DNA of 64,000 nt from Streptomyces sp. TG1A-60 (GTDB lineage Bacteria > Actinomycetota > Actinomycetes > Streptomycetales > Streptomycetaceae). Positions 9,669-31,500 of the stretch are shown here, one piece after another. Position numbers and translations under genes: made by a program. The notes under the pieces were generated by a model, which saw only the letters and a program-made list of their open reading frames with translations, had not been told where the DNA came from and made no database searches. The stretch lies in the NCBI RefSeq assembly GCF_037201975.1, contig NZ_CP147520.1, positions 7,316,001-7,380,000 of the forward strand, in the 5' to 3' direction. The first letter of the stretch is position 1; every line of letters begins with the position of its first letter.

Positions 9669-10847
9669 ATGAGCGGCGCCAAGCCGATGAAGGACCCCCT
9701 CGACCTGCTCGACATCTCCTCCACCCTCACCGACGAGGAACGCGAGATCCAGGCCACCGTCGCCAAGTTCCTCGCCGACCGGGTGCGCCCGTACATCGGC
9801 GAGTGGTTCGAGAACGCCCACTTCGCCCGCGAACTCGCCCCCGAGCTAGGGAAGTTGGGTGTTCTGGGAATGCATCTCGAAGGCCACGGCTGTGCCGGGA
9901 CGAACGCGGTCAGCTACGGCCTCGCCTGTCTGGAGCTGGAGGCGGCGGACTCCGGCTTCCGCAGCTTCGTCTCCGTTCAGGGCTCGCTGTCGATGTTCTC
10001 CATCTGGAAGTGGGGTTCGGAGGAGCAGAAGCTTCAGTGGCTGCCCCGGCTCGCCGCCGGTGAGGCGATCGGCTGCTTCGGCCTGACCGAGCCCGACTTC
10101 GGCAGCAACCCCGCCGGGATGCGCACCAGAGCCGTGCGTGACGACGGCGACTGGATCCTGAACGGCTCCAAGATGTGGATCACCAACGGCGGCATCGCCG
10201 ATGTGGCCACCGTCTGGGCGCAGACCGAGGACGGAGTCCGGGGCTTCCTCGTACCGCGCGGAACACCGGGCTTCACCACCCAGGACATCAAGCAGAAGAT
10301 GTCCCTGCGCGCCTCCGTCACCTCGGAGCTGTACTTCGACAACGTACGGCTGCCCGACTCGGCGCGACTGCCGCTCGCGGAGGGCCTGCGCGGACCGCTG
10401 GCCTGCCTGAACGAGGCCCGCTTCGGCATCCTGTTCGGCGCGGTCGGCGCTGCCCGCGACTGCATCCAGGCGGCCATCCAATACGCCGACTCCCGCGTGC
10501 AGTTCGACAAGCCGATCAGCGCCTTCCAGCTCACGCAGAAGAAGCTCGCCGACATGAGCGTGTCCGTGGGCAACGCCGCGCTGCTCGCCGTGCACCTGGG
10601 CCGGCTCAAGGACCAGCACCGCATCCGGCCCGAGCAGATCAGCGTCGGCAAGCTCAACAACGTGCGAGAAGCGATCGCCATCGCGCGGGAGTGCCGCACC
10701 GTCCTGGGAGCCAACGGCATCTCCCTGGAGTACTCGCCGCTGCGCCACGCCAACAACCTGGAGTCCGTCCTGACCTACGAAGGCACCAGTGAGATGCACA
10801 CCCTGGTCGTGGGACAGGCGCTCACCGGCCAGGCGGCGTTCCGCTGA
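9669..10847 (+). CDS. Acyl-CoA dehydrogenase, glutaryl-CoA dehydrogenase-like
   Basis: A 392-aa FAD flavoenzyme of the acyl-CoA dehydrogenase family that forms the alpha,beta double bond of an acyl-CoA. The N-terminal helical domain is followed by the flavin-contact motifs CFGLTEPDFGSNPAGM and WILNGSKMWITNG. The C-terminal part has the catalytic Glu in LTYEGTSEMH. This context, together with RVQFDKPISAFQ, resembles the glutaryl-CoA dehydrogenase branch. Substrate cannot be fixed by reading. The start ATG 9669 follows AGGAGCTC. It is the only intact enzyme in a cluster of eroded acyl-CoA genes (crotonase-like, DUF35) and probably survives on its own. Confidence 0.9.
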   Translation: MSGAKPMKDPLDLLDISSTLTDEEREIQATVAKFLADRVRPYIGEWFENAHFARELAPELGKLGVLGMHLEGHGCAGTNAVSYGLACLELEAADSGFRSFVSVQGSLSMFSIWKWGSEEQKLQWLPRLAAGEAIGCFGLTEPDFGSNPAGMRTRAVRDDGDWILNGSKMWITNGGIADVATVWAQTEDGVRGFLVPRGTPGFTTQDIKQKMSLRASVTSELYFDNVRLPDSARLPLAEGLRGPLACLNEARFGILFGAVGAARDCIQAAIQYADSRVQFDKPISAFQLTQKKLADMSVSVGNAALLAVHLGRLKDQHRIRPEQISVGKLNNVREAIAIARECRTVLGANGISLEYSPLRHANNLESVLTYEGTSEMHTLVVGQALTGQAAFR

Positions 10848-10849
10848 CC

Positions 10850-10996
10850 GATGGTCAGGAAGGCTGCTGCGTGGGTGTTGGTCAGGGCGAGGAAGATGTT
10901 CGCCGTCGGGACCTTGCGTTCGGCCTCCAGACGGTCGTACAGGGGCTGTCGCGCCTCGTCGGCGTCCTCGCGGCGCAGGTAGGGGACTCGTGCCAT
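10850..10996 (-). pseudogene. Carboxymuconolactone decarboxylase-family N-terminal fragment
   Basis: Reads MARVPYLRREDADEA then PLYDRLEAERKVPTANIFLAL, the start of the AhpD/CMD-like family, and ends abruptly against the acyl-CoA dehydrogenase stop. The part carrying the redox or catalytic Cys/His is absent, so this is only about 45 of roughly 180 residues. Confidence 0.55.
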
Positions 10997-11240
10997 GGGT
11001 GCAGGTCGTGCGCCGCGGCGAACGGCCGCGACGCGGACACGATGACGTACGGACGGCTGGCGCGGAGCGTCGTACAGGACAGTCCGGCCTCGTCACCGAA
11101 CGCGTACAACAGAGCCACGTCGCACGATCCCTGGACCAACGCCTGTCGCATGTCGTCCTGCTGACCCTGGATCAGTTCCAGGCTGACCGCCGGGTGGAGC
11201 CGGGTGAACCCGTCCCACCAGGAGTGGAATCAGAAAGGGC
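10985..11240 (-). pseudogene. LysR-family regulator, substrate-binding-domain fragment
   Basis: One frame reads FTRLHPAVSLELIQGQQDDM, then LVQGSCDVALLYAFG and RPYVIVSASRPFAAAHDL. This is the strand-helix pattern of a LysR effector domain. The helix-turn-helix and the C-terminal third are missing. The break runs directly into the start of the CMD-family fragment, as after a deletion that joined the two. Confidence 0.55.
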
Positions 11241-11479
11241 GTAAGGGCCGCATATTGATCGGAAACCCATGGGGTTCTCGTCCGAATTCTCCGACCCGTA
11301 CACCGTGGCCTCCGCGCTGATCGGCGGCGAGGCTGGGCCTGCATCTCGACGACTTCTCACCCGAGGCGTTCGCGGACCCGTGGCGGCTCCGCGCTGGCGG
11401 AGAGCGCGGTTCCCCCGGAACCGTGTCTGTCGTAGCGTGTGCTGAGCCTGGTGACAGCGCGTACGGAGGGTGGTTGGAC

Positions 11480-11929
11480 GTGGATCCGGTATCGGTGGGG
11501 TTGCTGGCGGCGCTCGCGGGTGGCGTCGGCGGTGAGGTGGGCCGGCAGGCGTGGGCGGGGCTGAGCGCCCTGGTGCGGCGCCCGTTCCGGTCCGGGCGGG
11601 GCTCCGGCCAGGCCTCTGCGGTCAGTTCCGGCGAAGCCGAGCTGGTGGCCTTGGGCCAGGCGCCGGCCGATGTGACGCGTGCGCAGGCGCTCAGCACCGC
11701 TCTGGCGGTGCGGGCCTCGGTGGATGAGGAATTCGGGGACGGGCTTCGGCCATGGCATGAGCAGGCGAAGCTGGTACGCACCGGTGACGGCGAGGTGATC
11801 AACACGATCAGCGGTGGTACTCAGAATGGCCCCGTGGTACAGGGTCGGGACTTCTCGGGGATCTCCATCACCACCGCACCACCGCCCCCGGCCGTTCCTG
11901 GGGACAGCATGCCGCGCCGACAGGACTGA
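11480..11929 (+). CDS. Small helical protein with C-terminal amyloid-signalling-like motif
   Basis: 149 aa from GTG 11480, placed 9 nt after GGAGGG. It starts with a glycine-rich hydrophobic helix (DPVSVGLLAALAGGVGGEVG), then an amphipathic helical region (AGLSALVRRPF; GEAELVALGQAP). It ends with a motif at residues 108-130: NTISGGTQNGPVVQGRDFSG. No enzyme motif is seen. The motif has the G-x-x-x-G-P-V-x-Q-G-x-D/N-x-x-G pattern of RHIM/PP-like amyloid motifs reported beside bacterial NLRs. The next gene carries the same domain and motif at its N-terminus. I infer an effector of Bell/HeLo-like type that is triggered by the downstream ATPase. The family assignment is from memory and should be tested by profile search. 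Confidence 0.65.
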   Translation: MDPVSVGLLAALAGGVGGEVGRQAWAGLSALVRRPFRSGRGSGQASAVSSGEAELVALGQAPADVTRAQALSTALAVRASVDEEFGDGLRPWHEQAKLVRTGDGEVINTISGGTQNGPVVQGRDFSGISITTAPPPPAVPGDSMPRRQD

Positions 11930-11995
11930 GCGCCCACCGCCCGGGGGGTTTCAGGGTTGTCGGTCGTTTACAGTCGGCTTTCGGGGGGTGGCTGC

Positions 11996-14900
11996 GTGGA
12001 GCTTCTGTGGGAAGGGCTGCTGCTGGCGACGGTACGCGGCGATGAGGACGGGGCCTGTTCCCGTCGGGAAGCCTTGGCCGCCCTCGTACGTGGCCCCCTG
12101 CCTCACGGCATTGAATGTCCCACCGGTGAGGCCGAGCTCGCGGCCGTGACCGCCGCTCCTTCCGATCCCGCCCTCGCCGGAGCGCTCGCCCTCGCCCTCG
12201 GCAAGAGAGCTCAGGTCCAGCCCGGTTTCGCGGAGGCTCTTGACGCCCTCTGGGGCGTTGCGGACGGTGCCCACTACAATCTCATCGCCGGCGGGGTACA
12301 GAACGGCCCGGTCTTCCAGATCGGCAACAACTACGGGCCGGTCACCGTTCACACCTCGTCGCCGGATTCCCTGCCGGCTCATTTGCAGGACCCCGAGGCA
12401 TGGCCGGCGACCCGCGACTGGGACGGCCTGCTCGCCGGTGTACACCGCGCGCGCCCCGGGCAGGACGGCAGCGTCCTGCCCCCGTACGTCCCTCGGGACA
12501 TCGACGAGGAGCTGCGCGCCCTGCTGACCGCAGCCGCCGGCGACGGCGGACTGGTCCTGGTCACCGGTGACTCCACGTCGGGCAAGACGCGGGCCGCTTT
12601 CGAGGCGCTGCGTGCCTCGCTCCCCGACCACCGCGTTGTGCAGCCGGCCGACCACACCGAACTGCCCGGGGTGGCCCGCGCCGTGGCCCGCTCCTCGGAG
12701 CCCTGTGTCGTATGGCTGGACGACCTGGAGCGCTACCTCGGACCCGGACCGGACAGCCTGACCCCCGCATTGCTGAGCCACTTCGCCGCCGGCACCACCG
12801 CCCTCCTCGCCACAATGAGACTGCGGCAGTACGAGACCTACACGGCTGACCACGACAGGGCGCGAGGCACCGCCGGGGCCAACGGCGGAGCTCACAAAGG
12901 GGTGCTGGCCGCCGCCCGCCGCGTGAACCTGGACCGTATGTGGAGCGGCACCGAGCTGGCCCGAGCCCGCGCCTGCGCCGACGACCGCATCACACATGCC
13001 TTGGCCCACCACGGCCCCCATGGCATCGCCGAGTACCTTGCCGCTGGCCCCGCCCTGCTGGACGACTGGCACACCGCAGACCGCCCCGGCGGCCACCCGC
13101 GCGGCGCCGCGCTGGTGGCCACCGCGGTCGACCTGTCCCGCACCGGACTGCCCGGCCCCTACCCGCGCTCGCTGCTGCTCCGCCTGCACGAACAGCGCCT
13201 CGCCCAGGCCGGAGGCGCACTGCTGCGGCCGGAGACAGCGGACGAGGCGTTCGCCTGGGCAGGCGCGCTTCGCTTCGGCGTGACCAGCCTGCTCCTACCG
13301 GGCGACGAGCCGGACACCTGGATGCCGTTCGACTATCTCGTCGACCGCACCGAGGACCCCCTGCCGTCGGAGGTGTGGGACGAGGCGCTGATGAACGCCC
13401 CCGAACCGGCCGCCCGATTCGCCGTCGGCTTCTCCGCCCTCCAGGCCGACCTGCCGCACGTGGCGGAAGCCGCCTGGCGACCGCACGCCCACACCGTCCC
13501 GATAATCGCCTCCTGGCTCGGCCGGCTGCTGGATGCACAGGAGCGGCCCGGCGAGGCGGAAGAGGTTCTGCGTGCCGCGATCAGGGCCGGTTCCGTCATC
13601 GCCGCCACCGACCTGGGGCTGCTGCTCGCACGCACCCACCGCCCCAACGAGGCCGAAGCCTGGCTGCGGCTGGCCGCTCGCTACGACGACGCCCGCGCCA
13701 TGTACCTCCACGGCGAACTCCTGCGCCAAACCGGCCGGGAAGCGGAGGCCGAGCACTGGTTCCGACGTGCCGAGGCAGCCGGCAGCCAGGCCGCCACCAC
13801 CGCCTACGGGATTCTGCTCGCCGACCTGGGCCGCACGGAGGCGGCCGAAGAGCAGCTGAGCCGGGCAGCGGACGCGGACCTTCCAGGGGCCGCTGCCGTC
13901 CTCGGACTGCTGCTCGTACGGACCGGCAGACCGGAGGAGGCGGAGGAGCTGACGCGACGTCCCCTGCCCGAGCCCAGCTTCGCCCGCCTGCGCCTCTCCT
14001 TCGGCCTGAAATATGCGGGATTCCTCCTCAACAGACCCGACCGCGCGGAACTGGAGTACGCCCGTACCGCCCTGCTCTCCCGTATCGAGGCCGCCGGTGC
14101 ACCCGGCGGCGGGGTGTTCCTGCTGTCTCCGGATCTGGCGGAGGACGACGAGTACACCCACTGGTCGGCCAATCACGGCAACGTGTTCGCCGCCCTGGAC
14201 CTGGCCGGCCTCGGCCCAGGCGATCCTTCCGGCTTCGAGAACGAACTCCACCGTCGTATCATCGAGGCTGGCCGCAGCGGGGACAACGCACAGGCAGCGG
14301 CCCTCGCCCGCCCTGCGGCGGACGAGGGCGACAGTACCGCCAGAAGCATGCTCATCACCGCGCTCACGGCACTGGGCCGCGAGGATGAAGCCCTGCCCTA
14401 TGCGCGCGCCGCTGTGGCGGACGACGAGGATGACAAGGCCTGGCACCTGGCCGGCCTGCTTTACCTGACGGGCCGCCAAGATGAGGCAGAGCAATATCTT
14501 CCGCTTCTCGGTGAGAAGCAGGCAGAGGACACCTACCGCGAGGCCCGCTTCTTCCGTCTCATGGAATACACCGCCCGTATGGAGGAAGCGGAGGGGATCC
14601 GGCGTGAACGTCCCGAGCTGTGCGACCTGAGCTCAGCCGAGTGCCGCCGCAGGGTCGAAGGTTACCTGCGACTCGCCGCCCGCCTCGGACACTTTGAGGC
14701 CGCTGCCCAACTCGCCGATGTCCTCGACAAGTCCGGCCGGAGCACCGAGTCCACCCTCTACCATCGCCAGGCCGCCGACGGCGGAGACCTCCGGGCAGCC
14801 TTCATCACCGCCGAACGACTCCAGCGGGACGGCGACGTGCAAGCAGCGGAACGCTACTACCGCCGCGCCGCCGACCGGGACCACTCCAAGGCCGCCAGGC

Positions 14901-15301
14901 ACCTCGCCCGCCTGCTCGGTCAGTCCGGCCGCCGGGGCGAAGCCCGTGCCTACCGGCGCCGCGCAGCCCAGGCCGACCGCCGGGCCGATCGCCTCGAAGC
15001 AGGCATCCTCCAGCGTGCCACCTGGTGCCTGCTGACACTCGGCTCTCTGGGGCTGCTCTCCTGGGTGCCATTCCTCTACGTGGCTCTCCGACGCGGCCGT
15101 CGTCGTGACTGGTGGACCTGTGCCGCCTTCTTCGTGGTCCAGGCAGTGGTCGTCACAGCGGTGGTCCTCATCACACGTAGTCCCGGGGACCGCACTCTGG
15201 AGGCGCTGCAGCCGCTCTTCGGTAGCCTGATGCACATCACCCTCGCGTCAGGCCCGCTGATGCTGGCCTTCGCCACCTTCGACAGGCCGAGAGCTGACTG
15301 A
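11996..15301 (+). CDS. STAND/NLR-like P-loop ATPase with TPR/Sel1 repeats and membrane tail
   Basis: 1101 aa from GTG 11996 (GGGGGG ribosome site). Residues 1-94 are a helical domain that aligns with the whole upstream small protein. Residues 95-118 hold the motif NLIAGGVQNGPVFQIGNNYG. The P-loop domain follows, with Walker A G191-DSTSGKT-198 and Walker B CVVWLDDLE (237-245). Residues about 460-1000 are degenerate TPR/Sel1-type helical repeats (for example GLLLARTHRPNEAEAWLRLA). The tail has two or three hydrophobic helices (about 1008-1030, 1039-1061 and perhaps 1074-1095) separated by RRGRRRD. This is the sensor-switch-effector layout of NLR-like proteins, with the repeats as likely sensor. 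The ligand and biological role are unknown. It follows the small gene by 66 bp, probably in one operon. Confidence 0.75.
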   Translation: MELLWEGLLLATVRGDEDGACSRREALAALVRGPLPHGIECPTGEAELAAVTAAPSDPALAGALALALGKRAQVQPGFAEALDALWGVADGAHYNLIAGGVQNGPVFQIGNNYGPVTVHTSSPDSLPAHLQDPEAWPATRDWDGLLAGVHRARPGQDGSVLPPYVPRDIDEELRALLTAAAGDGGLVLVTGDSTSGKTRAAFEALRASLPDHRVVQPADHTELPGVARAVARSSEPCVVWLDDLERYLGPGPDSLTPALLSHFAAGTTALLATMRLRQYETYTADHDRARGTAGANGGAHKGVLAAARRVNLDRMWSGTELARARACADDRITHALAHHGPHGIAEYLAAGPALLDDWHTADRPGGHPRGAALVATAVDLSRTGLPGPYPRSLLLRLHEQRLAQAGGALLRPETADEAFAWAGALRFGVTSLLLPGDEPDTWMPFDYLVDRTEDPLPSEVWDEALMNAPEPAARFAVGFSALQADLPHVAEAAWRPHAHTVPIIASWLGRLLDAQERPGEAEEVLRAAIRAGSVIAATDLGLLLARTHRPNEAEAWLRLAARYDDARAMYLHGELLRQTGREAEAEHWFRRAEAAGSQAATTAYGILLADLGRTEAAEEQLSRAADADLPGAAAVLGLLLVRTGRPEEAEELTRRPLPEPSFARLRLSFGLKYAGFLLNRPDRAELEYARTALLSRIEAAGAPGGGVFLLSPDLAEDDEYTHWSANHGNVFAALDLAGLGPGDPSGFENELHRRIIEAGRSGDNAQAAALARPAADEGDSTARSMLITALTALGREDEALPYARAAVADDEDDKAWHLAGLLYLTGRQDEAEQYLPLLGEKQAEDTYREARFFRLMEYTARMEEAEGIRRERPELCDLSSAECRRRVEGYLRLAARLGHFEAAAQLADVLDKSGRSTESTLYHRQAADGGDLRAAFITAERLQRDGDVQAAERYYRRAADRDHSKAARHLARLLGQSGRRGEARAYRRRAAQADRRADRLEAGILQRATWCLLTLGSLGLLSWVPFLYVALRRGRRRDWWTCAAFFVVQAVVVTAVVLITRSPGDRTLEALQPLFGSLMHITLASGPLMLAFATFDRPRAD

Positions 15302-20321: not shown

Positions 20322-20554
20322 CAGGGACGCCGGGTGCGAGCCGGGCCCCACGAGCGGCCCGATGCGCGGGTGTCGCGGCTTCGAGGACCAGGTGCCGTCG
20401 GCGGGTTCGGCGCGGCCGAGGGACGTGGGCGGAGGGCGGCGCGTGAGCGGCCGAGGGCGGCGGGAGGTGTACCCGGGCACGGCCGTGCAGGTCACCGGGC
20501 AGTAGAGTGCGCCTCTGTCGCCCCGAGAGCCGCCCGAACCCGAGGTACCGAGCA

Positions 20555-21820
20555 GTGATCCCCGCACGACAAGGACCGCCGTACGCCGTCACCGTCGTCG
20601 GGCTCGGCGCCGACGGCTGGCCGGGCATCACCGACGCCTCAAGGACGGCTCTGCGGGAGGCCGAGGTACTGATCGGCGGGCCGCGGCAGCTGGACCTGCT
20701 GCCCCCGGAGTGCGAGGGGGAGCGGATCGCCTGGCCCTCGCCCCTGCGCCCCGCCGTCCCCGGCCTGCTCGCCGCGCACGCTGGCCGGCGGATCGCCGTG
20801 CTCGCCAGCGGCGACCCCATGTTCCACGGCATCGGCCGCGCCCTCGCCGAGGAGGCCGGCGACCGGCTGCGGATCCTGCCGCACCCGTCCTCCGTCTCCT
20901 ACGCCGCCGCCCGGCTCGGCTGGCCGCTGGAGGACGTCGAGGTGGTCACCCTCGTCGGCAGACCCGCCGCCCGCCTCTCCGCCGCCCTGCACGAGGGCCG
21001 GCGGCTCCTCGTGCTCAGCGCGGACGCCGGGACGCCCGCCGAGGTCGCCGCCCTGCTGCGGGACCGAGGCTTCGGGCCGAGCCGGATGCGGATCCTGGAA
21101 CAGCTGGGCGGACAGAAGGAGCGGACGACCGAGGCGACCACCGCCGACGACCGGGTACCAACGCGCCCACCCGTCGATCCCCTCAACATCGTCGCCGTCG
21201 AGTGCCGGCGGGCCCCCGACAGGCTCCGGCTCGGCGCCGTACCGGGGCTCCCGGACGAGGCGTACGAGCACGACGGGCAGCTCACCAAGCGGTATGTGCG
21301 CGCCGCCACGCTGGCCGCGCTCGCCCCGGCACCCGGTGAGCTGCTCTGGGACATCGGCGGAGGGTCCGGCTCCATCGCGATCGAGTGGATGCGTACGCAC
21401 CCCTCCTGCCGGGCGGTCACCGTCGAACGTGATCCGGTGCGGGCCGAGCGCATCACCCGCAACGCCGAACGGCTCGGCGTGCCCGGGCTGCGGGTCGTCA
21501 CCGGTGCCGCGCCCGCCGCGCTGGCCGAACTGCCGCCGCCCGACGCCGTGTTCATCGGCGGCGGGCTCACCGCGCCCGGCCTCCTCGACGCGTGCTGGGC
21601 GGCTCTGCCCGACGGCGGGCGGCTGGTCGCCAACACCGTGACGCTGGAGTCCGAGGGGCTGCTCGCCGCCGCCCACCGGCGGCACGGCGGCGAGCTGGTG
21701 CGTCTCGCGGTGGCGCACGCGGTGCCCGTGGGCGGCTTCACCGGGTGGCGGCAGGCGATGCCGGTGACCCAGTGGGCCGTACAGAGAACCCTCAACACCG
21801 TTCCGGGAGCAGACAGATGA
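20555..21820 (+). CDS. cobL: Precorrin-6Y C5,15-methyltransferase (decarboxylating), CbiE-CbiT fusion
   Basis: 421-aa fusion enzyme of cobalamin synthesis that methylates C5 and C15 and decarboxylates the C12 acetate. Residues about 10-230 are the CbiE-like tetrapyrrole methylase domain (VTVVGLGADGWPGI; VLASGDPMFHGIG). Residues about 240-415 are the CbiT domain with the SAM motif LLWDIGGGSGSIAIEW. The start is GTG 20555; the CGAGGTACCG before it is a moderate ribosome site. The stop overlaps cobM by 4 nt (ATGA). A 54-residue linker around ERTTEATTADDR is probably flexible. Confidence 0.92.
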   Translation: MIPARQGPPYAVTVVGLGADGWPGITDASRTALREAEVLIGGPRQLDLLPPECEGERIAWPSPLRPAVPGLLAAHAGRRIAVLASGDPMFHGIGRALAEEAGDRLRILPHPSSVSYAAARLGWPLEDVEVVTLVGRPAARLSAALHEGRRLLVLSADAGTPAEVAALLRDRGFGPSRMRILEQLGGQKERTTEATTADDRVPTRPPVDPLNIVAVECRRAPDRLRLGAVPGLPDEAYEHDGQLTKRYVRAATLAALAPAPGELLWDIGGGSGSIAIEWMRTHPSCRAVTVERDPVRAERITRNAERLGVPGLRVVTGAAPAALAELPPPDAVFIGGGLTAPGLLDACWAALPDGGRLVANTVTLESEGLLAAAHRRHGGELVRLAVAHAVPVGGFTGWRQAMPVTQWAVQRTLNTVPGADR

Positions 21821-22566
21821 CCGTGTACTTCATCGGCGCCGGCCCCGGCGCCGCCGACCTGATCACGGTCCGGGGCGCCCGGAGGCTCGCCGCCTGCCGG
21901 GTCTGCCTGTACGCGGGCAGCCTCGTCCCGCGCGAACTGCTGGCCACATGCCCGCCGGACGCCCGGCTGGTGGACACCGCCCAGCTCGACCTGGACCAGA
22001 TCACCGCCGAGCTGGTCCGCGCGCACGAGGAGGGGCACGACGTGGCCCGGCTGCACTCCGGGGACCCGTCCGTGTTCAGCGCGGTCGCCGAGCAGATGCG
22101 GCGGCTGGACGCGGCCGGGGTGCCGTACGAGGTGGTGCCGGGCGTGCCCGCGTTCGCCGCCGCGGCGGCCTCCCTGAAGCGGGAGCTGACCGTGCCGACC
22201 GTCGGCCAGACCGTCATCCTCACCCGCGTCGCCCAACGCGCCACCGCCATGCCGGAGGGCGAGGACCTGGCCACCCTCGGCCGCAGCGGTGCGCTGATCG
22301 TGCTGCACCTCGCCGCCACGTACGTGGACCGTGTGGTCGCCGAACTGCTCCCGCACTACGGCGCCGACTGCCCCGCCGCGGTCGTCGCCTACGCCTCCCG
22401 CCCCGAGGAACTGATCATCCGGGGCACGCTGGAGGAGATCGCCGGGAGGGTGAAGGAGGCCGGTGTCCTGCGCACCGCAGTGATCATGGTCGGGCGGACG
22501 CTGGGTGCCGAACAGTTCCGCGACAGCCACCTGTACTCGCCGGACCGGGAACGCCACATCTGCTGA
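21817..22566 (+). CDS. cobM: Precorrin-4 C11-methyltransferase
   Basis: 249-aa class III SAM methyltransferase (CobM/CbiF) that methylates C11 of precorrin-4. The N-terminal FIGAGPGAADLITVRG and the ARLHSGDPSVFSAV motif form the SAM and substrate clefts. VVPGVPAFAAAAASL is the family's third signature. Length is normal. It starts inside the cobL stop (ATGA), so the two are translationally coupled. It is followed by about 230 bp containing no gene and then the convergent cbiD. Confidence 0.93.
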   Translation: MTVYFIGAGPGAADLITVRGARRLAACRVCLYAGSLVPRELLATCPPDARLVDTAQLDLDQITAELVRAHEEGHDVARLHSGDPSVFSAVAEQMRRLDAAGVPYEVVPGVPAFAAAAASLKRELTVPTVGQTVILTRVAQRATAMPEGEDLATLGRSGALIVLHLAATYVDRVVAELLPHYGADCPAAVVAYASRPEELIIRGTLEEIAGRVKEAGVLRTAVIMVGRTLGAEQFRDSHLYSPDRERHIC

Positions 22567-22796
22567 CCCCGGACGGTACGGGGCCGCTCACCCGACGTTC
22601 GCCACGCTGCCGGAGCTCCGGTGGGGGAGTCCGGCGGACCGGCGGTCCCTCACGTGAGCCCGATCGCCGCCCCAGGGGGCGGAAAGGGGAGCGGCGTCGT
22701 TCCGCGCGGGGGTCGCCGCGGTCGGGGTGGCTGTGCGGGCGAGCGTGCGCGACGCGGCGGCGGTCCGGGCGCGGTGTGCGGGCAGGGGCGATCGCG

Positions 22797-23948
22797 CTAC
22801 CGGACCGCGCTGCGCCCCACGATCGTGCCCGCCCGGTCGATACAGATCACGTCGACCGCGACGGGCGCGCCCCGCAGCACGGCCAGGGCCTCGTCGCGGG
22901 CCGTCGTCGCGACCAGATCGCCCAGCTGCACACGGGCCGCCCGGCACAGCTGGAGCGCGGCGAGCCCGGTGTTGGCGTCGGCCACCTCGGCGGCCAGGGC
23001 CTCTCCCGCGCCGCCGCGCCGGGCCAGCTCGGCGAGGAAGGCCTTGTCGACCTGGGAGCGGGCGGAGTGCAGATCGAGATGGCCGGCGGCGAGCTTGGAG
23101 AGCTTGGCGAAACCGCCGCAGATCGTCAGCCGCTCGACGGGATGCCGGCGCACGTACTTCAGCACCGCGCCCGCGAAGTCACCCATGTCGAGCAGCGCGT
23201 CCTCGGGCAGCTCGTACTCGGCGACGACCGTCCTCTCCGACGTCGACCCGGTGCACCCGGCCACATGCGTGCGCCCGGCCGCCCGTGCCACGTCCACGCC
23301 CCGCCGGATGGAGTCGATCCACGCCGAACAGGAGTACGGGACCACGATCCCGGTGGTGCCCAGGATCGACAGACCGCCGAGGATGCCGAGGCGCGGGTTC
23401 CAGGTGGAGCGGGCGATCTCCTCGCCGTGGTCCACGGAGACGGTGACTTCGACGTCACCGGTGCCGCCGTGCCGGGCGGCGACCCGGGCGACATGGTCCC
23501 GCATCATCTGACGGGGGACCGGGTTCACCGCCGGTTCACCGACGGGCAGGGGCAGGCCCGGACGGGTGATGGTCCCGACGCCGGGTCCGGCCCTGAAGAC
23601 CACCCCGGCCCCGGCCGTCAGCCGCCGTACCGTGGCCCGCACCAGCGCGCCGTGCGTGACGTCCGGGTCGTCACCCGCGTCCTTCACGACCCCCGCCATC
23701 GCGCTCTCGCCGGTCAGCTCCTCGACCGCGAGCGCGAACGACGGGGTCTGCCCCTTCGGCAGGGTGATCGTCACCGGGTCGGGGAACTCGCCGGTCAGCA
23801 GCGCGGTGTACGCGGCCGTCGTCGCCGCCGTCGCACAGGCGCCGGTGGTCCAGCCGTGCCGCAGACCGGTGTGCTTGAGTTGGGCCGCGCGACCGCCCTT
23901 CGCCGAACCGGCGGCACCACCCGCACCTTGCTCTTCACTTCTGCTCAT
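22797..23948 (-). CDS. cbiD: Cobalt-precorrin-5B C1-methyltransferase
   Basis: 383-aa enzyme that methylates C1 and is best known from the anaerobic corrin route, where it takes the place of CobF. Signatures are HGWTTGACATAATTAAY near the N-terminus, GTTGIVVPYSCSAWIDS in the middle and TICGGFAKLSKLAAGH. The chosen start ATG 23948 begins MSRSEEQG; an ATG 24 nt upstream (MHGSPGPF) is possible but would reach into cobK. It is divergent from cobK, with only 18 bp between the two start codons. Finding it beside cobG implies a mixed pathway. Confidence 0.92.
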   Translation of the reverse strand: MSRSEEQGAGGAAGSAKGGRAAQLKHTGLRHGWTTGACATAATTAAYTALLTGEFPDPVTITLPKGQTPSFALAVEELTGESAMAGVVKDAGDDPDVTHGALVRATVRRLTAGAGVVFRAGPGVGTITRPGLPLPVGEPAVNPVPRQMMRDHVARVAARHGGTGDVEVTVSVDHGEEIARSTWNPRLGILGGLSILGTTGIVVPYSCSAWIDSIRRGVDVARAAGRTHVAGCTGSTSERTVVAEYELPEDALLDMGDFAGAVLKYVRRHPVERLTICGGFAKLSKLAAGHLDLHSARSQVDKAFLAELARRGGAGEALAAEVADANTGLAALQLCRAARVQLGDLVATTARDEALAVLRGAPVAVDVICIDRAGTIVGRSAVR

Positions 23949-23966
23949 GAACGGACCCGGACTTCC

Positions 23967-24713
23967 ATGCATGTACTGATACTCGGCGGAACCACGGAGG
24001 CCCGCCGCCTGGCCGAGCTGCTGCACCGCACCCCGGGCCTGACCCTGACCAGCTCCCTCGCCGGACGGGTCGCCGGCCCCCGGCTGCCCCCGGGGAAGGT
24101 CCGGGTCGGTGGCTTCGGCGGGGCCGAGGGCCTGGCTGCCTGGCTGCGCGAGCACACCGTCGACGCGCTCATCGACGCCACCCACCCTTTCGCCGGGACC
24201 ATGAGTTTCCACGCGGCGCGGGCAGCCGCCACCACCCATGTTCCCCTGCTCGCGCTGCGCCGCCCCGGCTGGGTCCCGGTCGACGGCGACGACTGGCACG
24301 CGGCCGCCACCCTGGCAGAGGCCGCGACCCTGCTGCCCGCGCTCGGCCGGCGCGTCTTCCTCACCACCGGACGCATGGGCCTGGCCGCGTTCGCCGCCCT
24401 CGACGACCTGTGGTTCCTCGTACGGTCCGTCGACGCGCCCGAGGCCCCGCACCCGGCCCGTATGGAGGTGCTGCTCGACCGGGGCCCCTTCACCCTCGAC
24501 GGGGAGCGCGAGCTGCTGCGCCGCCACCGTGTCGACGTCGTCGTGACGAAGGACAGCGGGGGAGCCGCCACCGCTCCGAAACTGACGGCCGCCCGTGAGG
24601 CCGGGCTGCCCGTCGTCGTGGTGCGCAGGCCGCCCGCGCCGGAGGGCGTCCCCGTGGTGGCCGACCCCGAGGCGGCGGCCCGTTGGGTCGAGGAGCGTGT
24701 CCCCGCCCGCTGA
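23967..24713 (+). CDS. cobK: Precorrin-6A reductase
   Basis: 248-aa NADPH-dependent reductase (CobK/CbiJ) that reduces precorrin-6A. The N-terminus MHVLILGGTTEARRLAE is the typical nucleotide-binding start, followed by DALIDATHPFAGTMS and, late in the protein, VVTKDSGGAATAPKL. Length is normal. ATG 23967 has no good ribosome site; the message may be leaderless or share a very compact divergent promoter with cbiD. It ends 52 bp from the convergent cobIJ, with a strong hairpin between. Confidence 0.92.
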   Translation: MHVLILGGTTEARRLAELLHRTPGLTLTSSLAGRVAGPRLPPGKVRVGGFGGAEGLAAWLREHTVDALIDATHPFAGTMSFHAARAAATTHVPLLALRRPGWVPVDGDDWHAAATLAEAATLLPALGRRVFLTTGRMGLAAFAALDDLWFLVRSVDAPEAPHPARMEVLLDRGPFTLDGERELLRRHRVDVVVTKDSGGAATAPKLTAAREAGLPVVVVRRPPAPEGVPVVADPEAAARWVEERVPAR

Positions 24714-24728
24714 CTCCCGGCAGCCGAC

Positions 24729-24761
24729 GCGCGGCGCCGCACACGTGGCGCGGCGCCGCGC
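24729..24761. terminator. Bidirectional hairpin between cobK and cobIJ
   Basis: Perfect 12-bp inverted repeat GCGCGGCGCCGC / GCGGCGCCGCGC around a 9-base loop, in the short gap between convergent genes. No U-tract is present, which is normal for Streptomyces terminators. Confidence 0.65.
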
Positions 24762-24765
24762 ACGC

Positions 24766-26274
24766 TCAGCCCTCCGGATAGCGGCGAGGCGTCCAGACGA
24801 TCTCCTCGCCGTGCCCGCGCCGTGCGACCCGGGTCTGCGAGGACCCGACCAGCAGGATCGTCCGCATGTCGACCTCCGCCGGGTCCAGGTCGGCCAGCCG
24901 TACGATCCGGACGCGTTCCCCGGAGCCGCCCACGTCCCGCGCGACCACGACCGGGGTGTCCGGCGCCCGGTGCTCCAGCAGCAGCTCGCGCGCCTTGCCC
25001 ACCTGCCAGGTGCGGCTTCGGGAACCGGGGTTGTACAGGGCAAGGACCAGGTCCGCCGAGGCCGCGGCGCGCAGCCGCTCGGCGATCACCTCCCACGGCT
25101 TGAGCCGGTCGGAGAGGGAGAGGGCGGCGTAGTCGTGGCCGAGCGGGGCGCCCGCGCGGGCGGCGGCGGCGTTGGCGGCGGTCACGCCCGGCAGCACACG
25201 CACCGGAACCCCCGTGTACTCCTCCTGCGCGGCGACCTCCAGCACGGCCGTCGCCATGGCGAAGACGCCCGGGTCGCCGCCGGAGACGACCGCGACCCGC
25301 CGCCCACGCCGGGCCAGACCGAGGGCGAACTCGGCGCGCTCCGACTCGACCCGGTTGTCCGAGCCGTGCCGCACCTGGCCCGCCCGGAGCGGCACCCGGT
25401 CCAGGTAGGTGGTGTAGCCGACCAGGTCGTCGGCGGCGGCGAGCGCGCCCCGCGACTCGGGCGTCAGCCACAGCGGGCCGGCCGGACCGGTCCCGACCAC
25501 GACCACCTCGCCCCGCTGCCGCTCCTCGCCCCGCTCCCGGGCCACGGGCCGCTCGGCGTCGACCTGGCTGGGCAGCACGGCCACCGAGAAGTACGGCACC
25601 GACTCCGCGTCCACGTCCGCCAGTTCGGCGAGCCGCTCCCCGGCCATGGTGGCCCGCTCGACATACCGGGCCTCACCCAGCCGTCCCGAACTCTCCAGCG
25701 CGCCGCGGACCTTGCTGAAGGTCCGGCCCAGCTTCATCACCACGGCCACGTCCGTCGCGGCCAGCCGCGCGGTCAGCTCCTCCTCGGGCAGGGTGCCCGG
25801 CAGGATCGTCAGCACCTCCTCGCCCTCGGCGAGCGGCGTGCCCAGCCGGGCCGCGGCGGCGGACACCGACGTCACCCCCGGGATGACCTCGGTGTCGTAG
25901 CGGTCGACGAGCCGCTTGTGCATGTGCATGTAGGAGCCGTAGAAGAGCGGATCGCCCTCGGCGAGGACCGCGACCGTGCGCCCCGCGTCGAGATGCGCCG
26001 CCAGCCGGGCCGACGCCTGCGCGTAGAACTCCTCCATCGCGCCCTTGTAACCGCCCGGATGGTCGGTGGTCTCCGTCGTCACCGGGTAGACCAGCCGCTC
26101 CTCGATGTGGTCGGCGCGGATGTGCCGTGCCGCGATCGAGCGGGCGATGGACCGGCCGTGCCGGGCACTGTGGTACGCGATCACATCCGCCTCGGCGATG
26201 ACCTCGACGGCCCGTACGGTCATCAGGGACGGGTCACCGGGGCCGAGCCCCACCCCGTACAGCTTGCCGCTCAC
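24766..26274 (-). CDS. cobIJ: Fused precorrin-2 C20- and precorrin-3B C17-methyltransferase
   Basis: 502-aa fusion of two corrin-ring methylases. Residues 1-240 are CobI ([48 protein letters not shown]). Residues about 255-502 are CobJ ([66 protein letters not shown]). A short charged linker ([12 protein letters not shown]) joins them. The start is GTG 26274, overlapping the cobH stop (GTGA). Such fusions are common in actinobacteria and let consecutive-pathway intermediates be handled by one chain. Confidence 0.93.
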
Positions 26275-26933
26275 TCTTCCTCACTCGCGATCGCGTTGAG
26301 CGCGGCGGCGGCGACGGCACTGCCGCCCCGCCGGCCGCGTACGACGATGTGCTCCAGGCCCGAGGGGTGCGCGGCCAGCGCGTCCTTGGACTCCGCGGCG
26401 CCGACGAACCCGACCGGCACGCCGATGACGGCGGCGGGCCGGGGCGCGCCCTCCTCGATCATCTCCAGCAGCCGGAACAGTGCGGTGGGCGCGTTGCCGA
26501 CGGCCACGACCGAACCCTCCAGCCGGTCCCGCCACAGCTCCAGAGCGGCGGCGCTGCGGGTGGTGCCCAGCTTCGCCGCCAGCTCGGGGACGGCCGGGTC
26601 GGAGAGTGTGCACAGCACGTCGTTGTCGGCGGGCAGCCGCTTGCGGGTGACACCGCTGGCCACCATCCGGACGTCGGTGAAGATCGGCGCCCCGGCACGC
26701 AGGGCCTCGCGGGCGCGGGCCACCACGTGGGGCGTGTACGCCAGGTCCCGTACCAGGTCGACCATTCCGCAGGCGTGGATCATCCGGACCGCGACCTGGC
26801 TGACGTCGGCGGGCAGGTCCGCGAGGTCCGCCTCCGCGCGGATGGTGGCGAAGGACCGCCGGTAGATGGCCGGGCCGTCCTTCTCGTAGTCGTACGTGGT
26901 CACGGTGGTGTTCTCGCTGCTCTCGGTCGTCAT
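26271..26933 (-). CDS. cobH: Precorrin-8X methylmutase
   Basis: 220-aa CobH/CbiC enzyme that moves the C11 methyl group to C12, forming hydrogenobyrinate. The catalytic His lies in [14 protein letters not shown], and the family motifs [16 protein letters not shown] and [18 protein letters not shown] are complete. The start ATG 26933 begins MTTESSEN. The first 20 residues are a polar extension before [13 protein letters not shown]. It lies 59 bp after cobG and overlaps cobIJ by 4 nt in the same minus-strand operon. Confidence 0.93.
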
Positions 26934-26992
26934 AGGGGTGTCGTTCGTGCGGCTCGTGCGGATGCTGGGTTCGTGAGGTTCGTGATGGCTTG

Positions 26993-28297
26993 TCAGGTGA
27001 TCGCCGCCAGGGCGGTGGCGAGTCGGGACGGGTCGGCCGGGGGCGCGGTGCGCGGGTCCTGGCCGGGTGCGGTGCGGGAGAGCTGATAGCCGCCGTCCGG
27101 GACGGCGACCACGTCGATCCGTTCGCCCCGGGGGTGGCCGCAGCGGCGCTCGCAGCCTGACCAGTACACGGGGAGGCCGGCGCGCCCGGCCGCCGCGAGG
27201 TTCTCGGTCGCGTCCGCCCGCACGTCCGCCAGGGACTTCGCGCATCCGGGCCGCCCGACGCAGGCGCCGACGCGCAGCCAGGGGGAGTCCGGGACGGTGA
27301 CGAGACCGGCCGCCGAGAGCCGGGCCAGCGTTTCGGACGCCTGTTCCTCGCTCATGCCGGGCGTGGGGACGACGACGCCGCGCCAGGGGGTCAGTCGCAG
27401 TTCACGGCAGGGGGTCCCGGAGGCGAGGTGTGTCAGTTCCCGCCACTGGGGGGTGGTGAGGCGGCCGAACGGGGCGTGTACGGAGAGGGCGTCGCCGACG
27501 GCTCCGGGAGGCGGGCCCTCGGCGTCGGCCGTCCCGACCCGCGGTCGGCTCGTGGCGTCGATGCCGTCGGCCGCCAGCCGACGGCGGACCAGGGGGAGCA
27601 GCTGTTCCTGGAAGGGGAGTTCGGTCACACGCCAGACCCGGGCCCCGCTCTCCCGCGCGGCCTCCAGGAACGTCTCGGCGGCTGCCAGCGCGGCGCGCGG
27701 CGCGTCTCCGGCGGGCACCGACAGGGCCTTCTCGGCGGTGCCGATGGCCAGCAGCGCGCCACCGTCCCCGGCTGCCCGGAGGGTCACATCGGCGCCGAGC
27801 GCGGCCACATCACCGCGCCCGTCGTCGAGCGCGAACAGGAACCGGCCCGACAGCGCCCGCGCCGCCTCGCTCCCGCACAGCGCCGCGTCTAGGCCCGACA
27901 GCCAGGGCCGTACGTCGCCCAGGCCCCGCCCGTCGAGGCCGGACAGCGGCGAGGCGACGATGTTGCGCACCCGCTCGTGTCCGGGGGAAGGGAGCAGCCC
28001 GGCCGTGTCCAGCGAGTCGGCCAACTCGGCCCCGCAGTCGCCGGCCAGCCCCCGTACCTGCACATTGCCGCGCGAGGTCAGATGAAGCTCACCGTCGCCG
28101 AGCCGCCGCGCCACCTCCGAGAGCGTCTCGGCCTGGCGGACGGTCAGCACCCCACCGGGGACCCGGACACGGGCCAGGGCCCCGTCGTCCGCCGTGTGCA
28201 GCCGCAGCGTCCCCGGGCAGGCGTCGCCACGGTCCCGTGAGACCGCTGTGGCCTGGGGCGATGGACGAAGGGGAGGCGTGGGCATGGCGGCGAGCAT
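26993..28297 (-). CDS. cobG: Precorrin-3B synthase
   Basis: 434-aa sulfite/nitrite-reductase-like oxygenase that uses O2 to make precorrin-3B ahead of ring contraction in the aerobic pathway. Two ferredoxin-like half domains are visible ([14 protein letters not shown] near residue 80). The 4Fe-4S/siroheme-type cysteine motifs follow: [13 protein letters not shown] and [15 protein letters not shown] near the C-terminus. I chose ATG 28297 because GAGGGTGGG lies just upstream; ATG 28285 would give four fewer residues. It is divergent from cobN and heads the cobG-cobH-cobIJ operon. Confidence 0.9.
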
Positions 28298-28344
28298 ACC
28301 CACCCTCACCACGGACGTATGCCCCGCCCTTTTGAGGCGACCCT

Positions 28345-28350
28345 TACTAT
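28345..28350 (+). promoter_or_regulatory. Candidate -10 box of the cobN transcript
   Basis: TACTAT fits the TANNNT -10 pattern. It is placed so that transcription would begin at about 28357, right at the left edge of the riboswitch. No good -35 is seen. Confidence 0.4.
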
Positions 28351-28352
28351 GC

Positions 28353-28545
28353 TCCTCGGGTGGATCATCCGGTCCGCCCTCGCCACGACGGCGACAGGGG
28401 AGGAAGTCCGGTGTGAGTCCGGCGCGGTCCCGCCACTGTGAGCCCGACCCCACCTGGGGACGGGCGAGCCAGGAACTCCCTTCCCCGAGTCTCGGCCCGG
28501 CCGAGCAGGGGAGACTCCGATCCGACACCGCCCGGGGCGCGGACC
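28353..28545 (+). promoter_or_regulatory. Cobalamin (B12) riboswitch
   Basis: Contains the conserved core GACAGGGGAGGAAGTCCGGT, then GCGGTCCCGCCACTGTGA and the B12-box-like GAGCCAGGAACT at 28466-28477, in the correct order and spacing for the adenosylcobalamin aptamer. The region after the B12 box (GGCCCGGCCGAGCAGGGGAG) could form the expression platform ahead of the cobN ribosome site (GAGGAAGG). It is predicted to reduce cobN expression when cobalamin is plentiful. Confidence 0.92.
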
Positions 28546-28567
28546 CCGAGGAAGGCCCAGCCGCCAC

Positions 28568-31500
28568 ATGATCCTGCTCCTGTCGACGTCCGACACCGAC
28601 CTGCTCAGCGCCCGAGCGGCAGCCGGCCCGGTCCCGTACCGCTTCGCCAACCCCTCGCGCCTCGACCTCGACGACCTCCCCGCCCTCCTCGACGGCGCCG
28701 ACCTGGTCGTCGTACGCCTCCTCGGCGGCATCCGCGCCTGGCAGGACGGCCTCGACCTGCTGCTCGCGGACGGCCGCCCGGTCGTCGTCCTCACCGGCGA
28801 ACAGGCCCCCGACGCTCAGCTGATGGCCGCCTCCACGGTCCCGGTCGGCATCGCCGCCGAGGCCCACGCCTACCTCGCCCACGGCGGCCCCGCCAACCTG
28901 GAGCAGCTCGCCCGCTTCCTCTCCGACACGGTCCTGCTCACCGGCCACGGCTTCGAGGCCCCCTCGCCCGCCCCCGCCTGGGGTCCGCTGGAGCGCACCC
29001 CGCGCGACGGCGTCGACGGCCCGACCGTCGCCGTGCTCTACTACCGCGCCCACCACATGAGCGGCAACACGGCGTTCGTGGACGCCCTGTGCGAGGCCGT
29101 CGAGGACGCCGGCGCACGGGCGCTGCCCCTGTACGTGGCGTCCCTGCGCACCCCCGAGCCCGAGCTGATCGAGGAACTCCGCGCCGCCGACGCCATCGTC
29201 ACCACCGTCCTCGCGGCCGGCGGCACCAAGCCCGCCGCGGCGTCCGCCGGCGGCGACGACGAGTCCTGGGACGCGGGCGCCCTCGCCGCCCTGGACGTGC
29301 CGATCCTCCAGGCCCTGTGCCTGACCGGCTCGCGCGCCGCCTGGGAGGAGAACGACGAGGGCGTCTCCCCGCTGGACGCGGCCAGCCAGATCGCCGTCCC
29401 CGAGTTCGACGGCCGCCTGATCACTGTCCCGTTCTCCTTCAAGGAGATCGACGCCGACGGCCTCCCGGCCTACGTCGCCGACCCCGAGCGCGCCGCCCGC
29501 GTGGCCGGAACCGCCGTACGTCACGCCCGGCTTCGCCACATCGCCAACGCCGACAAGCGTCTCGCGCTCGTCCTCTCCGCCTACCCGACCAAGCACTCCC
29601 GTATCGGCAACGCGGTGGGCCTGGACACCCCCGCCAGCGCGGTCGCCCTGCTGCGCCGACTGTGCGACGAGGGCTACGACTTCGGTGGCGCCGACGTCCC
29701 CGGCCTGGCTTCCGGCGACGGTGACGAGCTGATCCGCGCGCTGATCGAGGCGGGCGGCCACGACCAGGACTGGCTCACCGAGGAGCAGCTGGCCCGCAAC
29801 CCGGTCCGTATCCCGGCGGCCGACTACCGCCGCTGGTACGCCACCCTCCCCGCGGAACTCCGCAGTGCCGTCGAGGAGCACTGGGGCCCGGCACCGGGCG
29901 AGATGTTCGTGGACCGCAGCCGCGACCCGGAGGGCGACATCGTCCTCGCGGCCCTCCGCTTCGGCAACCTGCTGATCCTCATCCAGCCCCCGCGCGGCTT
30001 CGGCGAGAACCCGATCGCGATCTACCACGACCCGGACCTCCCGCCCTCCCACCACTACCTGGCCGCCTACCGCTGGATCGCCGCCCGCGCCGAGGACGGC
30101 GGCTTCGGCGCCGACGCGATGATCCACCTCGGCAAGCACGGCAATTTGGAGTGGCTGCCGGGCAAGAACGCGGGCCTGTCCGCCGCCTGCGGCCCCGACG
30201 CCGCCCTCGGAGACCTCCCCCTGGTCTACCCGTTCCTGGTCAACGACCCGGGCGAGGGCACCCAGGCCAAGCGCCGCGTCCACGCCACCCTCGTCGACCA
30301 CCTCGTCCCGCCGATGGCCCGCGCCGACTCCTACGGTGACATCGCGCGCCTGGAGCAACTCCTCGACGAGTACGCCCAGATCTCCTCCATGGACCCCGCC
30401 AAGCTCCCGGCGATCCGCGCCCAGATCTGGACCCTCATCCAGGCCGCCAAGCTGGACCACGACCTCGGCCTGAACGACCGCCCGGAGGACGACGGCTTCG
30501 ACGACTTCCTCCTGCATGTCGACGGCTGGCTCTGCGAGGTCAAGGACGCCCAGATCCGCGACGGCCTGCACGTCCTCGGCAATCCGCCCACCGGCGCCGA
30601 CCACGTCAACCTCGTCCTCGCCGTCCTCCGCGCCCGCCAGATCTGGGGCGGCACCACCGCCCTGCCCGGCCTGCGCGAGGCGCTCGGCCTCGACGAGTCC
30701 GCCGCGACCCGTACGACCGCCGACGCCGCCGAGGAGAAGGCCCGGGTGCTGGTCCAGGCGATGGAGGACGCGGACTGGGACCTGGCCGCCGTCCCCACCG
30801 AGCACGGCGAACAGGTCGCCGCCATCCTGGAGTTCGCCGCCCGCGAGGTCGTCCCGCGCCTCGCGGCCACGACCGCCGAGCTCGACCACACCGTCCACGC
30901 CCTGAACGGCGGCTTCGTCCCGCCGGGCCCCTCCGGCTCCCCGCTGCGCGGCCTCGTGAACGTCCTGCCGACCGGCCGCAACTTCTACTCCGTCGATCCC
31001 AAGGCCGTCCCCTCCCGCCTCGCCTGGGAGACGGGCCAGGCGCTCGCGGACTCCCTGCTGGAACGCTACCGCGCCGACAACGGCGAATGGCCCAGCTCCG
31101 TCGGCCTCTCCCTGTGGGGCACGAGCGCCATGCGCACGGCCGGGGACGACGTCGCGGAGGCCCTGGCCCTGCTCGGCGTCCGCCCCGTCTGGGACGACGC
31201 CTCCCGCCGGGTGACCGGCCTGGAGCCCATCCCGTACGAGGAGTTGGGCCGCCCCCGCGTCGATGTCACCCTGCGCATCTCGGGCTTCTTCCGCGACGCG
31301 TTCCCGCACACGATCGGGCTGCTCGACGACGCCGTACGCCTGGCCGCGTCGCTGGACGAACCGGCCGAGGCCAACCACGTCCGCGCCCACGTCCAGGCGG
31401 ACCTGGCCGCCCACGGCGACGAACGCCGCGCCACCACCCGCATCTTCGGCTCCCGGCCCGGCACGTACGGCGCCGGCCTGCTCCAGCTCATCGACTCCCG

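What the first reader, a model, noticed from the sequence alone, without database searches (positions are those of the whole stretch)
11480..15301. Two-gene amyloid-signalling-like cassette: small motif protein plus NLR-like ATPase
Seen: a 149-aa helical protein ends with a motif at residues 108-130 (GGTQNGPVVQGRDFSG), and the next gene, a P-loop ATPase with repeat domain, carries GGVQNGPVFQIGNNYG at residues 99-114 ahead of the ATPase. The shared GG-x-QNGPV-x-Q core and the QIGNN stretch resemble RHIM/PP-type amyloid cores. Known: bacterial NLR-type proteins are often paired with a small effector (Bell domain) sharing such a motif, and the cassette is thought to act as an innate-immune or cell-death switch. 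Inferred: the ATPase oligomerises on ligand binding, exposes its motif and templates the small protein into a membrane-active state. Its ligand and trigger are unknown.
Basis: partly seen in the sequence, partly recalled or inferred. Interest (0 to 1): 0.85.

Follow-up and report, generated by a model that had tools for sequence, protein, structure and literature searches.

The report
Streptomyces receptor and small effector pair
Two neighbouring Streptomyces genes look like a sensor and a small, possibly membrane-active partner that talk through a shared, possibly self-assembling motif; the kind is known, but here the sensor also carries its own altered copy of the partner's helical domain.

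Summary
A 149-aa helical protein (11480-11929) ends in GGTQNGPVVQGRDFSG. The next gene (11996-15301, 1101 aa) carries GGVQNGPVFQIGNNYG ahead of a P-loop NTPase and TPR/Sel1-like repeats. About 139 residues align (37%, E 9e-14), so the receptor starts with a homologue of the whole small protein, not only its motif.

Four further contigs encode both proteins. In the wider family 14 of 59 small proteins have a motif-bearing large neighbour, control mean 0.05. True partners' motifs match better than re-paired ones (38 of 10,000 permutations as good, 11 pairs). The motif is predicted disordered.

This fits the published Bell/BASS/NLR amyloid-signalling kind. The RHIM/PP label is not supported: a published BASS3 peptide does not match the motif model; a fungal sigma peptide does. 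New here: the receptor's copy has a charged first helix where 175 small proteins have a glycine-rich, low-charge one, and the receptor ends in hydrophobic segments; this N-terminal copy was found in six proteins. Amyloid, cell death and trigger are inferred. Ten flanking genes show no convincing defence function.

The parts
11480..11929 (+). Small Bell-like effector candidate, 149 aa, GTG start
   Evidence: Four 149-aa orthologues at 85-94% identity and 1077 homologues at E <= 0.001; family start mostly MDP.
11495..11779 (+). Predicted helical bundle of the small protein (residues 6-100), with a glycine-rich, weakly hydrophobic first part
   Evidence: AlphaFold2: five helices in residues 6-100, block means of pLDDT 80-87 with a dip to 70 and 59 at residues 31-50; first 25 residues low in charge and rich in glycine across 175 stand-alone proteins.
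11813..11860 (+). Effector-side signalling motif GGTQNGPVVQGRDFSG (residues 112-127)
   Evidence: Much of it invariant or nearly so in 50 aligned members; pLDDT below 50.
11996..15301 (+). NLR-like receptor, 1101 aa (ORF listing gives a longer frame from TTG 11957)
   Evidence: Start from orthologues; 66 bp after the small gene, same strand.
11996..12265 (+). Receptor N-terminal helical domain homologous to the small protein, first helix charged instead of hydrophobic
   Evidence: BLASTP E 9e-14; alignment; 6-10 charged residues in the first 25 in 6 of 6 receptors against at most 4 in 175 stand-alone proteins. Its own fold is not modelled with confidence.
12290..12337 (+). Receptor-side signalling motif GGVQNGPVFQIGNNYG (residues 99-114)
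   Evidence: Aligned with the effector motif; QIG invariant in the window and five orthologues.
12566..12589 (+). Walker A GDSTSGKT
   Evidence: GDST-x-GKT invariant in 6 orthologues; G-x-S-x-x-GKT invariant in 10 family members.
12713..12730 (+). Walker B-like WLDDLE
   Evidence: Invariant in 6 orthologues; WLD-x-LE invariant in 10 family members.
13367..14923 (+). TPR/Sel1-like repeat array (about residues 458-976), candidate ligand-sensing part
   Evidence: Pfam TPR_8 and TPR_16 above cut-off; helical repeats, largely pLDDT 78-89 with low-confidence gaps.
15026..15175 (+). C-terminal hydrophobic segments (residues 1011-1029 and 1042-1060), candidate membrane anchor
   Evidence: Mean hydropathy 1.76 and 2.53; 2-3 such segments in 6 of 6 clade members, and none at the C-terminus of the six receptor relatives scanned.

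Best explanation
A two-gene regulated-death or immunity-like switch of the bacterial Bell/amyloid-signalling/NLR kind. Shown: a small helical protein with a predicted disordered C-terminal motif sits directly upstream of a P-loop/TPR receptor carrying a like motif, and both proteins recur together. Also shown: in this clade the receptor starts with a homologue of the effector's helical domain whose first helix is charged rather than glycine-rich and hydrophobic, and the receptor ends in hydrophobic segments. Inferred: ligand binding at the repeats drives NTP-dependent receptor clustering, probably at the membrane; clustered motifs nucleate the effector's motif; the assembled effectors release their first helix into the membrane and harm or kill the cell. 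Inferred: the receptor's altered helical domain is a non-toxic docking or chaperoning copy that lets receptor and effector meet through two homotypic surfaces (domain and motif).
For: Homology of the receptor N-terminus to the small protein over 139 aa. Four further contigs with both proteins, by equal contig length and in one case neighbouring locus tags. Motif-bearing large neighbours for 14 of 59 family members, control mean 0.05 over 20 permuted models. Partner motifs more alike than re-paired ones, 38 of 10,000 in 11 non-redundant pairs. In the same receptor subfamily T stands in place of the core Q on both sides in the pairs of L078, L130 and L213. Motif disordered in the model. Charge contrast of the first helix, 6 of 6 receptors against 0 of 175. 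C-terminal hydrophobic segments, 6 of 6. Published anatomy of such cassettes (PMC7889193, passages).
Against: No measurement of amyloid, membrane activity or death. The published BASS models could not be run. 45 of 59 small proteins have no motif-bearing large neighbour by the rule used, and only 10 of the 14 that do have it downstream on the same strand. Only 3 of 36 receptor relatives had a small-family gene in the stretch held, one of them weak. Outside the subfamily the core residue differs between partners in L042, L080, L082, L085 and L086. The receptor's NTPase passes no NB-ARC or NACHT model and matches a NACHT set only weakly (probability 61; the NB-ARC and NACHT sets match each other at 78). 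The receptor model is poor over the N-terminus and NTPase. No convincing defence neighbours. The six receptors are one clade, so the helix change is one event, not a repeated pattern; the most distant of them overlaps the small proteins in hydropathy (0.74 against a minimum of 0.66).
Confidence: 0.62

Rival explanations
1. A homotypic adaptor pair without amyloid: the small protein and the receptor N-terminus bind as folded domains, as effector-associated domains are thought to do, and the short motif is a folded or beta-completing tail.
For: The whole helical domain is shared, not only the motif. The EAD logic of a domain shared by neighbouring genes is published (PMC7159879, passages).
Against: Receptor relatives with a small-protein partner (L078, L130, L139, L213) carry the motif without the helical domain, so the motif is the part kept in common. 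No Pfam match for the small protein. The motif is predicted disordered.
Confidence: 0.2
2. An ordinary STAND/TPR-type regulator with a small modulator, controlling development or metabolism rather than death or defence.
For: Flanking genes are mostly metabolic: acyl-CoA dehydrogenase, GH43, molybdenum and cobalamin genes. No PADLOC match for the pair.
Against: No DNA-binding or enzymatic output domain found in the receptor by Pfam or NCBIfam; patchy distribution, 67 of 246 genus genomes for the small family, own included; relatives on plasmids.
Confidence: 0.13
3. A RHIM/PP (BASS3) cassette.
For: QIG in the receptor motif recalls the RHIM tetrad, which is recalled, not from a call.
Against: The BASS3 peptide does not match the motif model. 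Glutamine spacing is 6 here and 7 in the BASS3 peptide and in the S. atratus mutant numbering Q113/Q120.
Confidence: 0.05

Closest known systems
Bell/BASS/NLR bacterial amyloid-signalling cassettes (Dyrka et al. 2020; paper not held, known here through passages of PMC7889193, PMC8086366, PMC9815663 and PMC12261475)
   Same: Adjacent genes; small helical protein with C-terminal motif; NLR-like receptor with a like motif ahead of its NTPase; a filamentous actinomycete.
   Different: The receptor also carries a homologue of the effector's helical domain, with its first helix altered, plus C-terminal hydrophobic segments; BASS class not assigned; NTPase type not settled.
RHIM / PP / BASS3 motifs
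   Same: Short Gly/Gln/Val-rich signalling motif; QIG in the receptor.
   Different: Different core and Gln spacing; the BASS3 peptide does not score on the motif model.
Fungal sigma motif (Nectria AAS80314 peptide, PMC8086366 Table 2)
   Same: Scores 17.0 bits on the Streptomyces motif model, above all of 20,000 shuffles (best 15.0); NEVSGGNFYGSV resembles NEISGGTFHGPV of L089.
   Different: One match of four peptides tried; plain pairwise alignment does not set it apart from background frames; PMC12261475 (passage) states that sigma lacks sequence homology to BASS. Convergence or composition is possible.
Effector-associated domains (PMC7159879, passages)
   Same: A non-enzymatic domain shared by an NTP-dependent protein and its neighbour.
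   Different: No Pfam match for the small protein; different core proteins.
Receptors with another fused helical-plus-motif N-terminus (L202, L203, L204; NB-ARC in L204, the one scanned)
   Same: Helical region, motif, then NTPase in one protein.
   Different: Their first helix stays hydrophobic; separate group in the tree.

Membership tests
Bell/BASS/NLR cassette | Same short motif at the C-terminus of a small protein and the N-terminal part of an adjacent NLR-like protein | tested here: met
Bell/BASS/NLR cassette | Small protein is an alpha-helical bundle | tested here: met
   AlphaFold2: five helices in residues 6-100.
Bell/BASS/NLR cassette | Hydrophobic transmembrane helix in the small protein | tested here: inconclusive
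   Best 19-residue hydropathy in the first 40 residues averages 1.22 over 175 proteins, below the 1.6 used for membrane segments; glycine-rich and low in charge.
Bell/BASS/NLR cassette | Receptor NTPase is of NLR/STAND type | tested here: inconclusive
   Walker A and B conserved; no NB-ARC or NACHT Pfam hit; profile match probability 61 to a NACHT set and 6.8 to an NB-ARC set, those two sets 78 to each other.
Bell/BASS/NLR cassette | Match to one of the BASS1-10 profiles | not testable with these tools
   Profiles not held; source paper not held.
Bell/BASS/NLR cassette | Motif forms amyloid and transmits it from receptor to effector | not testable with these tools
   Needs peptides and fusions in the laboratory.
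RHIM/PP/BASS3 | RHIM-like core as in the published BASS3 peptide | tested here: not met
   One BASS3 peptide tried: -0.6 bits on the motif model; by best-domain score 9,520 of 20,000 shuffles are as good or better.
Effector-associated domains | Match to an EAD profile | tested here: not met
   No Pfam family for the small protein up to E 10, and only TPR, AAA, ANAPC3 and DUF models for the receptor; that EAD models are in this library is recalled.
HeLo/MLKL-type executioner domains | Same four-helix-bundle fold | tested here: inconclusive
Known anti-phage defence systems | Match to a PADLOC model | tested here: not met
   No match for either protein at E <= 1.

The most novel reading that the evidence does not exclude
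The receptor carries a disarmed copy of its own effector: the same helical domain and motif, but with the membrane-active first helix replaced by a charged one, and with its own C-terminal membrane anchor. It would act as a safe, membrane-tethered template that captures and nucleates the armed effector through two matched surfaces, or restrains it in the resting state. The motif class would be a bacterial relative of the fungal sigma motif rather than of RHIM/PP.
Probability: 0.3. Interest if true: 0.7.

Novelty: new variant of a known kind. Interest (0 to 1): 0.52.

Why it matters
Bacterial amyloid signalling has been described mostly from motif pairs; which parts give partner specificity, and how the effector stays quiet, are open as far as I know. 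A clade in which the receptor carries an altered copy of the effector's domain beside a free-standing effector offers a direct test: delete or swap domain and motif separately and see which one signals. The matched motif changes in related pairs give a natural test of motif-encoded specificity.

Tried and rejected
RHIM/PP (BASS3) membership: rejected on the one published BASS3 peptide I had.

A profile test against BASS1-10: not possible; the source paper is not held and the models are not in the libraries used. A passage of PMC12261475 places a BASS1 motif at residues 9-27 of a Streptomyces NB-ARC protein, and several large neighbours here (NB-ARC in the two of them scanned, L041 and L044) carry their motif at about residues 4-39 of the open frame. 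This hints at BASS1, but it is not a test.

Recent local duplication of the small gene into the receptor: not supported. The receptor copy is about equally distant from its partner and from other small proteins (36-42%) and forms its own long branch whose place is unsure.

Fold matches for the small protein: none meaningful. Sequence relatives in the PDB: none convincing for either domain. The receptor model was too poor over the N-terminus and NTPase, so I ran no fold search with it.

Phage carriage: the small protein has no match among phage records; the receptor was not searched there. Defence island: of ten flanking genes scanned, PADLOC hits two, a MoaA-like gene (as viperin) and a tetrapyrrole methylase-like gene (as mad2); both look like shared-domain matches.

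Further clade members: a scan of genome contigs gave 36 receptor relatives, best 51% over a part, none with the N-terminal helical domain fully matched (the tool may leave out near genomes). The receptor N-domain in 392 genus genomes: no other clade member among the hits (11 candidates scored per genome). In 150 relatives, own included, one other match, to the NTPase part only (G069). The partner of the sixth receptor (P0126) was not seen.

Sigma by plain pairwise alignment: family members reach 51, but so does a background frame among 2,429 (some of which carry the motif), so only the profile score favours it.

Literature: searches listed no title or abstract on a receptor carrying an altered copy of its effector; most subscription papers are not held, so this is weak.
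Full report
What is there. The window lies in a 7.83-Mb chromosome; the genus, Streptomyces, follows from the named homologues. Two genes on the + strand: 11480-11929 (149 aa) and 11996-15301 (1101 aa), 66 bp apart. The receptor start is taken from its orthologues, which align from MELLWEG or MELVWNG. The database entry that matches this genome starts 50 residues later (P0125); residues 1-50 are conserved in the other five and align with the small protein, so I use the upstream start.

The motif and more. A DNA pattern for GG-x-QNGPV has 2 matches in the genome, both here. BLASTP aligns the small protein with the receptor N-terminus over 139 aa at 37%, E 9e-14. The helical region GEAEL...AP.D...A.AL..AL..RA aligns as well as the motif. 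So the receptor starts with a homologue of the whole small protein.

Recurrence of the pair. The small protein has 1077 homologues at E <= 0.001, of which 120 were listed. Searching with receptor residues 1-160 gave 6 proteins, one of them this genome's own (7,996 candidates scored). Four of the other five share a contig length with one of the four closest small-protein orthologues, and one such pair has neighbouring locus tags, AB0J25_01140 and 01135; I did not see the DNA between them. The fifth (P0126) has no partner seen. In 246 genomes of the genus, 67 have the small family at E <= 1e-4, own included (15 candidates scored per genome); in 296 genomes of the phylum, 5 do, in 2 of 198 genera (13 scored per genome). 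These counts are lower bounds.

Neighbours of the wider small-protein family. I fetched neighbourhoods of 63 of the 78 non-own matches, in 60 stretches; the 15 others, mostly the weakest, were left out. 59 family members were found as open frames of 80 aa or more. 14 of 59 have an open frame of 250 aa or more within 1.5 kb with the motif in its first 260 residues (score 6 or more): 10 downstream on the same strand, 2 upstream on the same strand, 2 upstream on the other strand. 20 column-permuted models gave 0 nineteen times and 1 once. The limits were set after I had seen the hits. Two more have a short open frame with the motif beside them (L045, L054). 45 of 59 have none by this rule, so most members are orphans or have undetected partners. 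Receptor types are mixed: NB-ARC (L041, L044), NACHT (L082) and the present TPR type (L078); L063 has no Pfam match. Named plasmid examples with adjacent genes are Streptomyces sp. NBC_00105 (overlap of 4 bp), NBC_00853 (5 bp apart; receptor motif TITGGVFFHAVIQGQDITV) and NBC_00390 (small gene not in the table; same length and place as the record behind L078, so not a further case). NBC_00280 has no such neighbour annotated within 4 kb. The other four plasmid matches were not looked at.

Receptor relatives. Of 36 named receptor relatives, 3 have a small-family gene in the stretch held (L130, L139, L164; L164 weak, E 0.002). Several (L132-L135, L138) have the motif at the extreme N-terminus without a detected partner. 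In L078, L130, L139 and L213 the receptor carries the motif and no helical domain. Within this receptor type, the integrated helical domain was seen in the clade of six only.

Matched motifs. Over 19 pairs (14, plus L130, L139, L045, L054 and the window), true partners score 52.6 on average against 44.1 for all pairings, and 1 of 10,000 permutations reaches the observed value; after collapsing similar receptors, 11 pairs, 38 of 10,000. Ranks are uneven: in the 11-pair set the true partner is best in 5, second in 1 (the window), fourth in 1 and seventh or worse in 4. In the same receptor subfamily the pairs of L078, L130 and L213 have T in place of the core Q on both sides, while the window and L139 pairs have Q on both sides. 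Elsewhere the core residue differs between partners in L042, L080, L082, L085 and L086. Shared ancestry and the choice of pairs by motif detection could inflate the match.

Structure. AlphaFold2 on 50 sequences gives five helices in residues 6-100 and pLDDT below 50 for residues 103-149, where the motif lies (mean pLDDT 66.9). Fold searches found nothing above what helical bundles give by chance. The receptor model has confident repeats only (mean pLDDT 56).

The receptor's copy is altered. Of 180 collected stand-alone proteins, 175 were measured (5 dropped for length or first residue). Their first 25 residues have at most 4 charged residues (mean 2.9) and 5.3 glycines on average (minimum 3); the six receptors have 6-10 charged residues and 2-5 glycines. 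Hydropathy is lower too (0.00-0.74 against a mean of 1.22), but overlaps at the edge (minimum 0.66; 20 of 175 at 1.0 or less). The receptors end in 2-3 hydrophobic segments; six related receptors scanned have none at the C-terminus (some of these frames may be incomplete). L202-L204 show another fusion with the hydrophobic helix kept, and an NB-ARC-like frame beside L052 has a similar N-terminus (by eye). The tree puts the six receptors in one group and the three L202-L204 proteins in another, but has few columns and long branches.

Which motif class. The motif model (59 small proteins, window not included) gives the published BASS3 peptide -0.6 bits and the fungal sigma peptide 17.0, about as much as the window's receptor motif (16.7). 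Over 20,000 shuffles each, none reaches sigma's 17.0 (best 15.0), and 9,520 reach the BASS3 value. Four peptides were tried; the other two gave no match. By plain pairwise alignment sigma is not special. So the sigma link is a lead only.

Papers. I saw passages of PMC7889193, PMC9815663, PMC12261475 and PMC7159879, passages plus section 13 of PMC8086366, and in PMC8195603 and PMC12881547 only passages of the reference lists; the 2020 BASS paper itself was not held.

Verdict. A good example of the known Bell/amyloid-signalling/NLR kind, wrongly labelled RHIM-like, with an unusual receptor that carries an altered copy of its effector's domain. The mechanism beyond anatomy is inferred.

Noticed in passing
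window 10775-11344: Between the acyl-CoA dehydrogenase and the cassette lie short frames on the - strand that look (by eye, no search) like truncated enzyme and LysR-type regulator pieces, suggesting decay or insertion at this site.
   Followed up: no
L202, L203, L204: Receptors with a fused hydrophobic helical region and motif (GGVNHGPVFQGSHIHG-like) ahead of the NTPase: possible single-protein versions of the system.
   Followed up: partly
L072 1494-4225: Several neighbouring frames carry motif variants (145, 202 and 215 aa, and a weak one of 173 aa), possibly a multi-effector cluster.
   Followed up: no
L132, L134, L135, L138: TPR receptors begin with a near-identical motif (NHISGGEQRDVIQAQSIGSVTFG; L134 has two such frames in tandem) but no small-family gene was found in the stretch held.
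   Followed up: partly
window 20507-32158: Ordinary cobalamin-pathway genes (CbiD, tetrapyrrole methylases, CobN) downstream.
   Followed up: no
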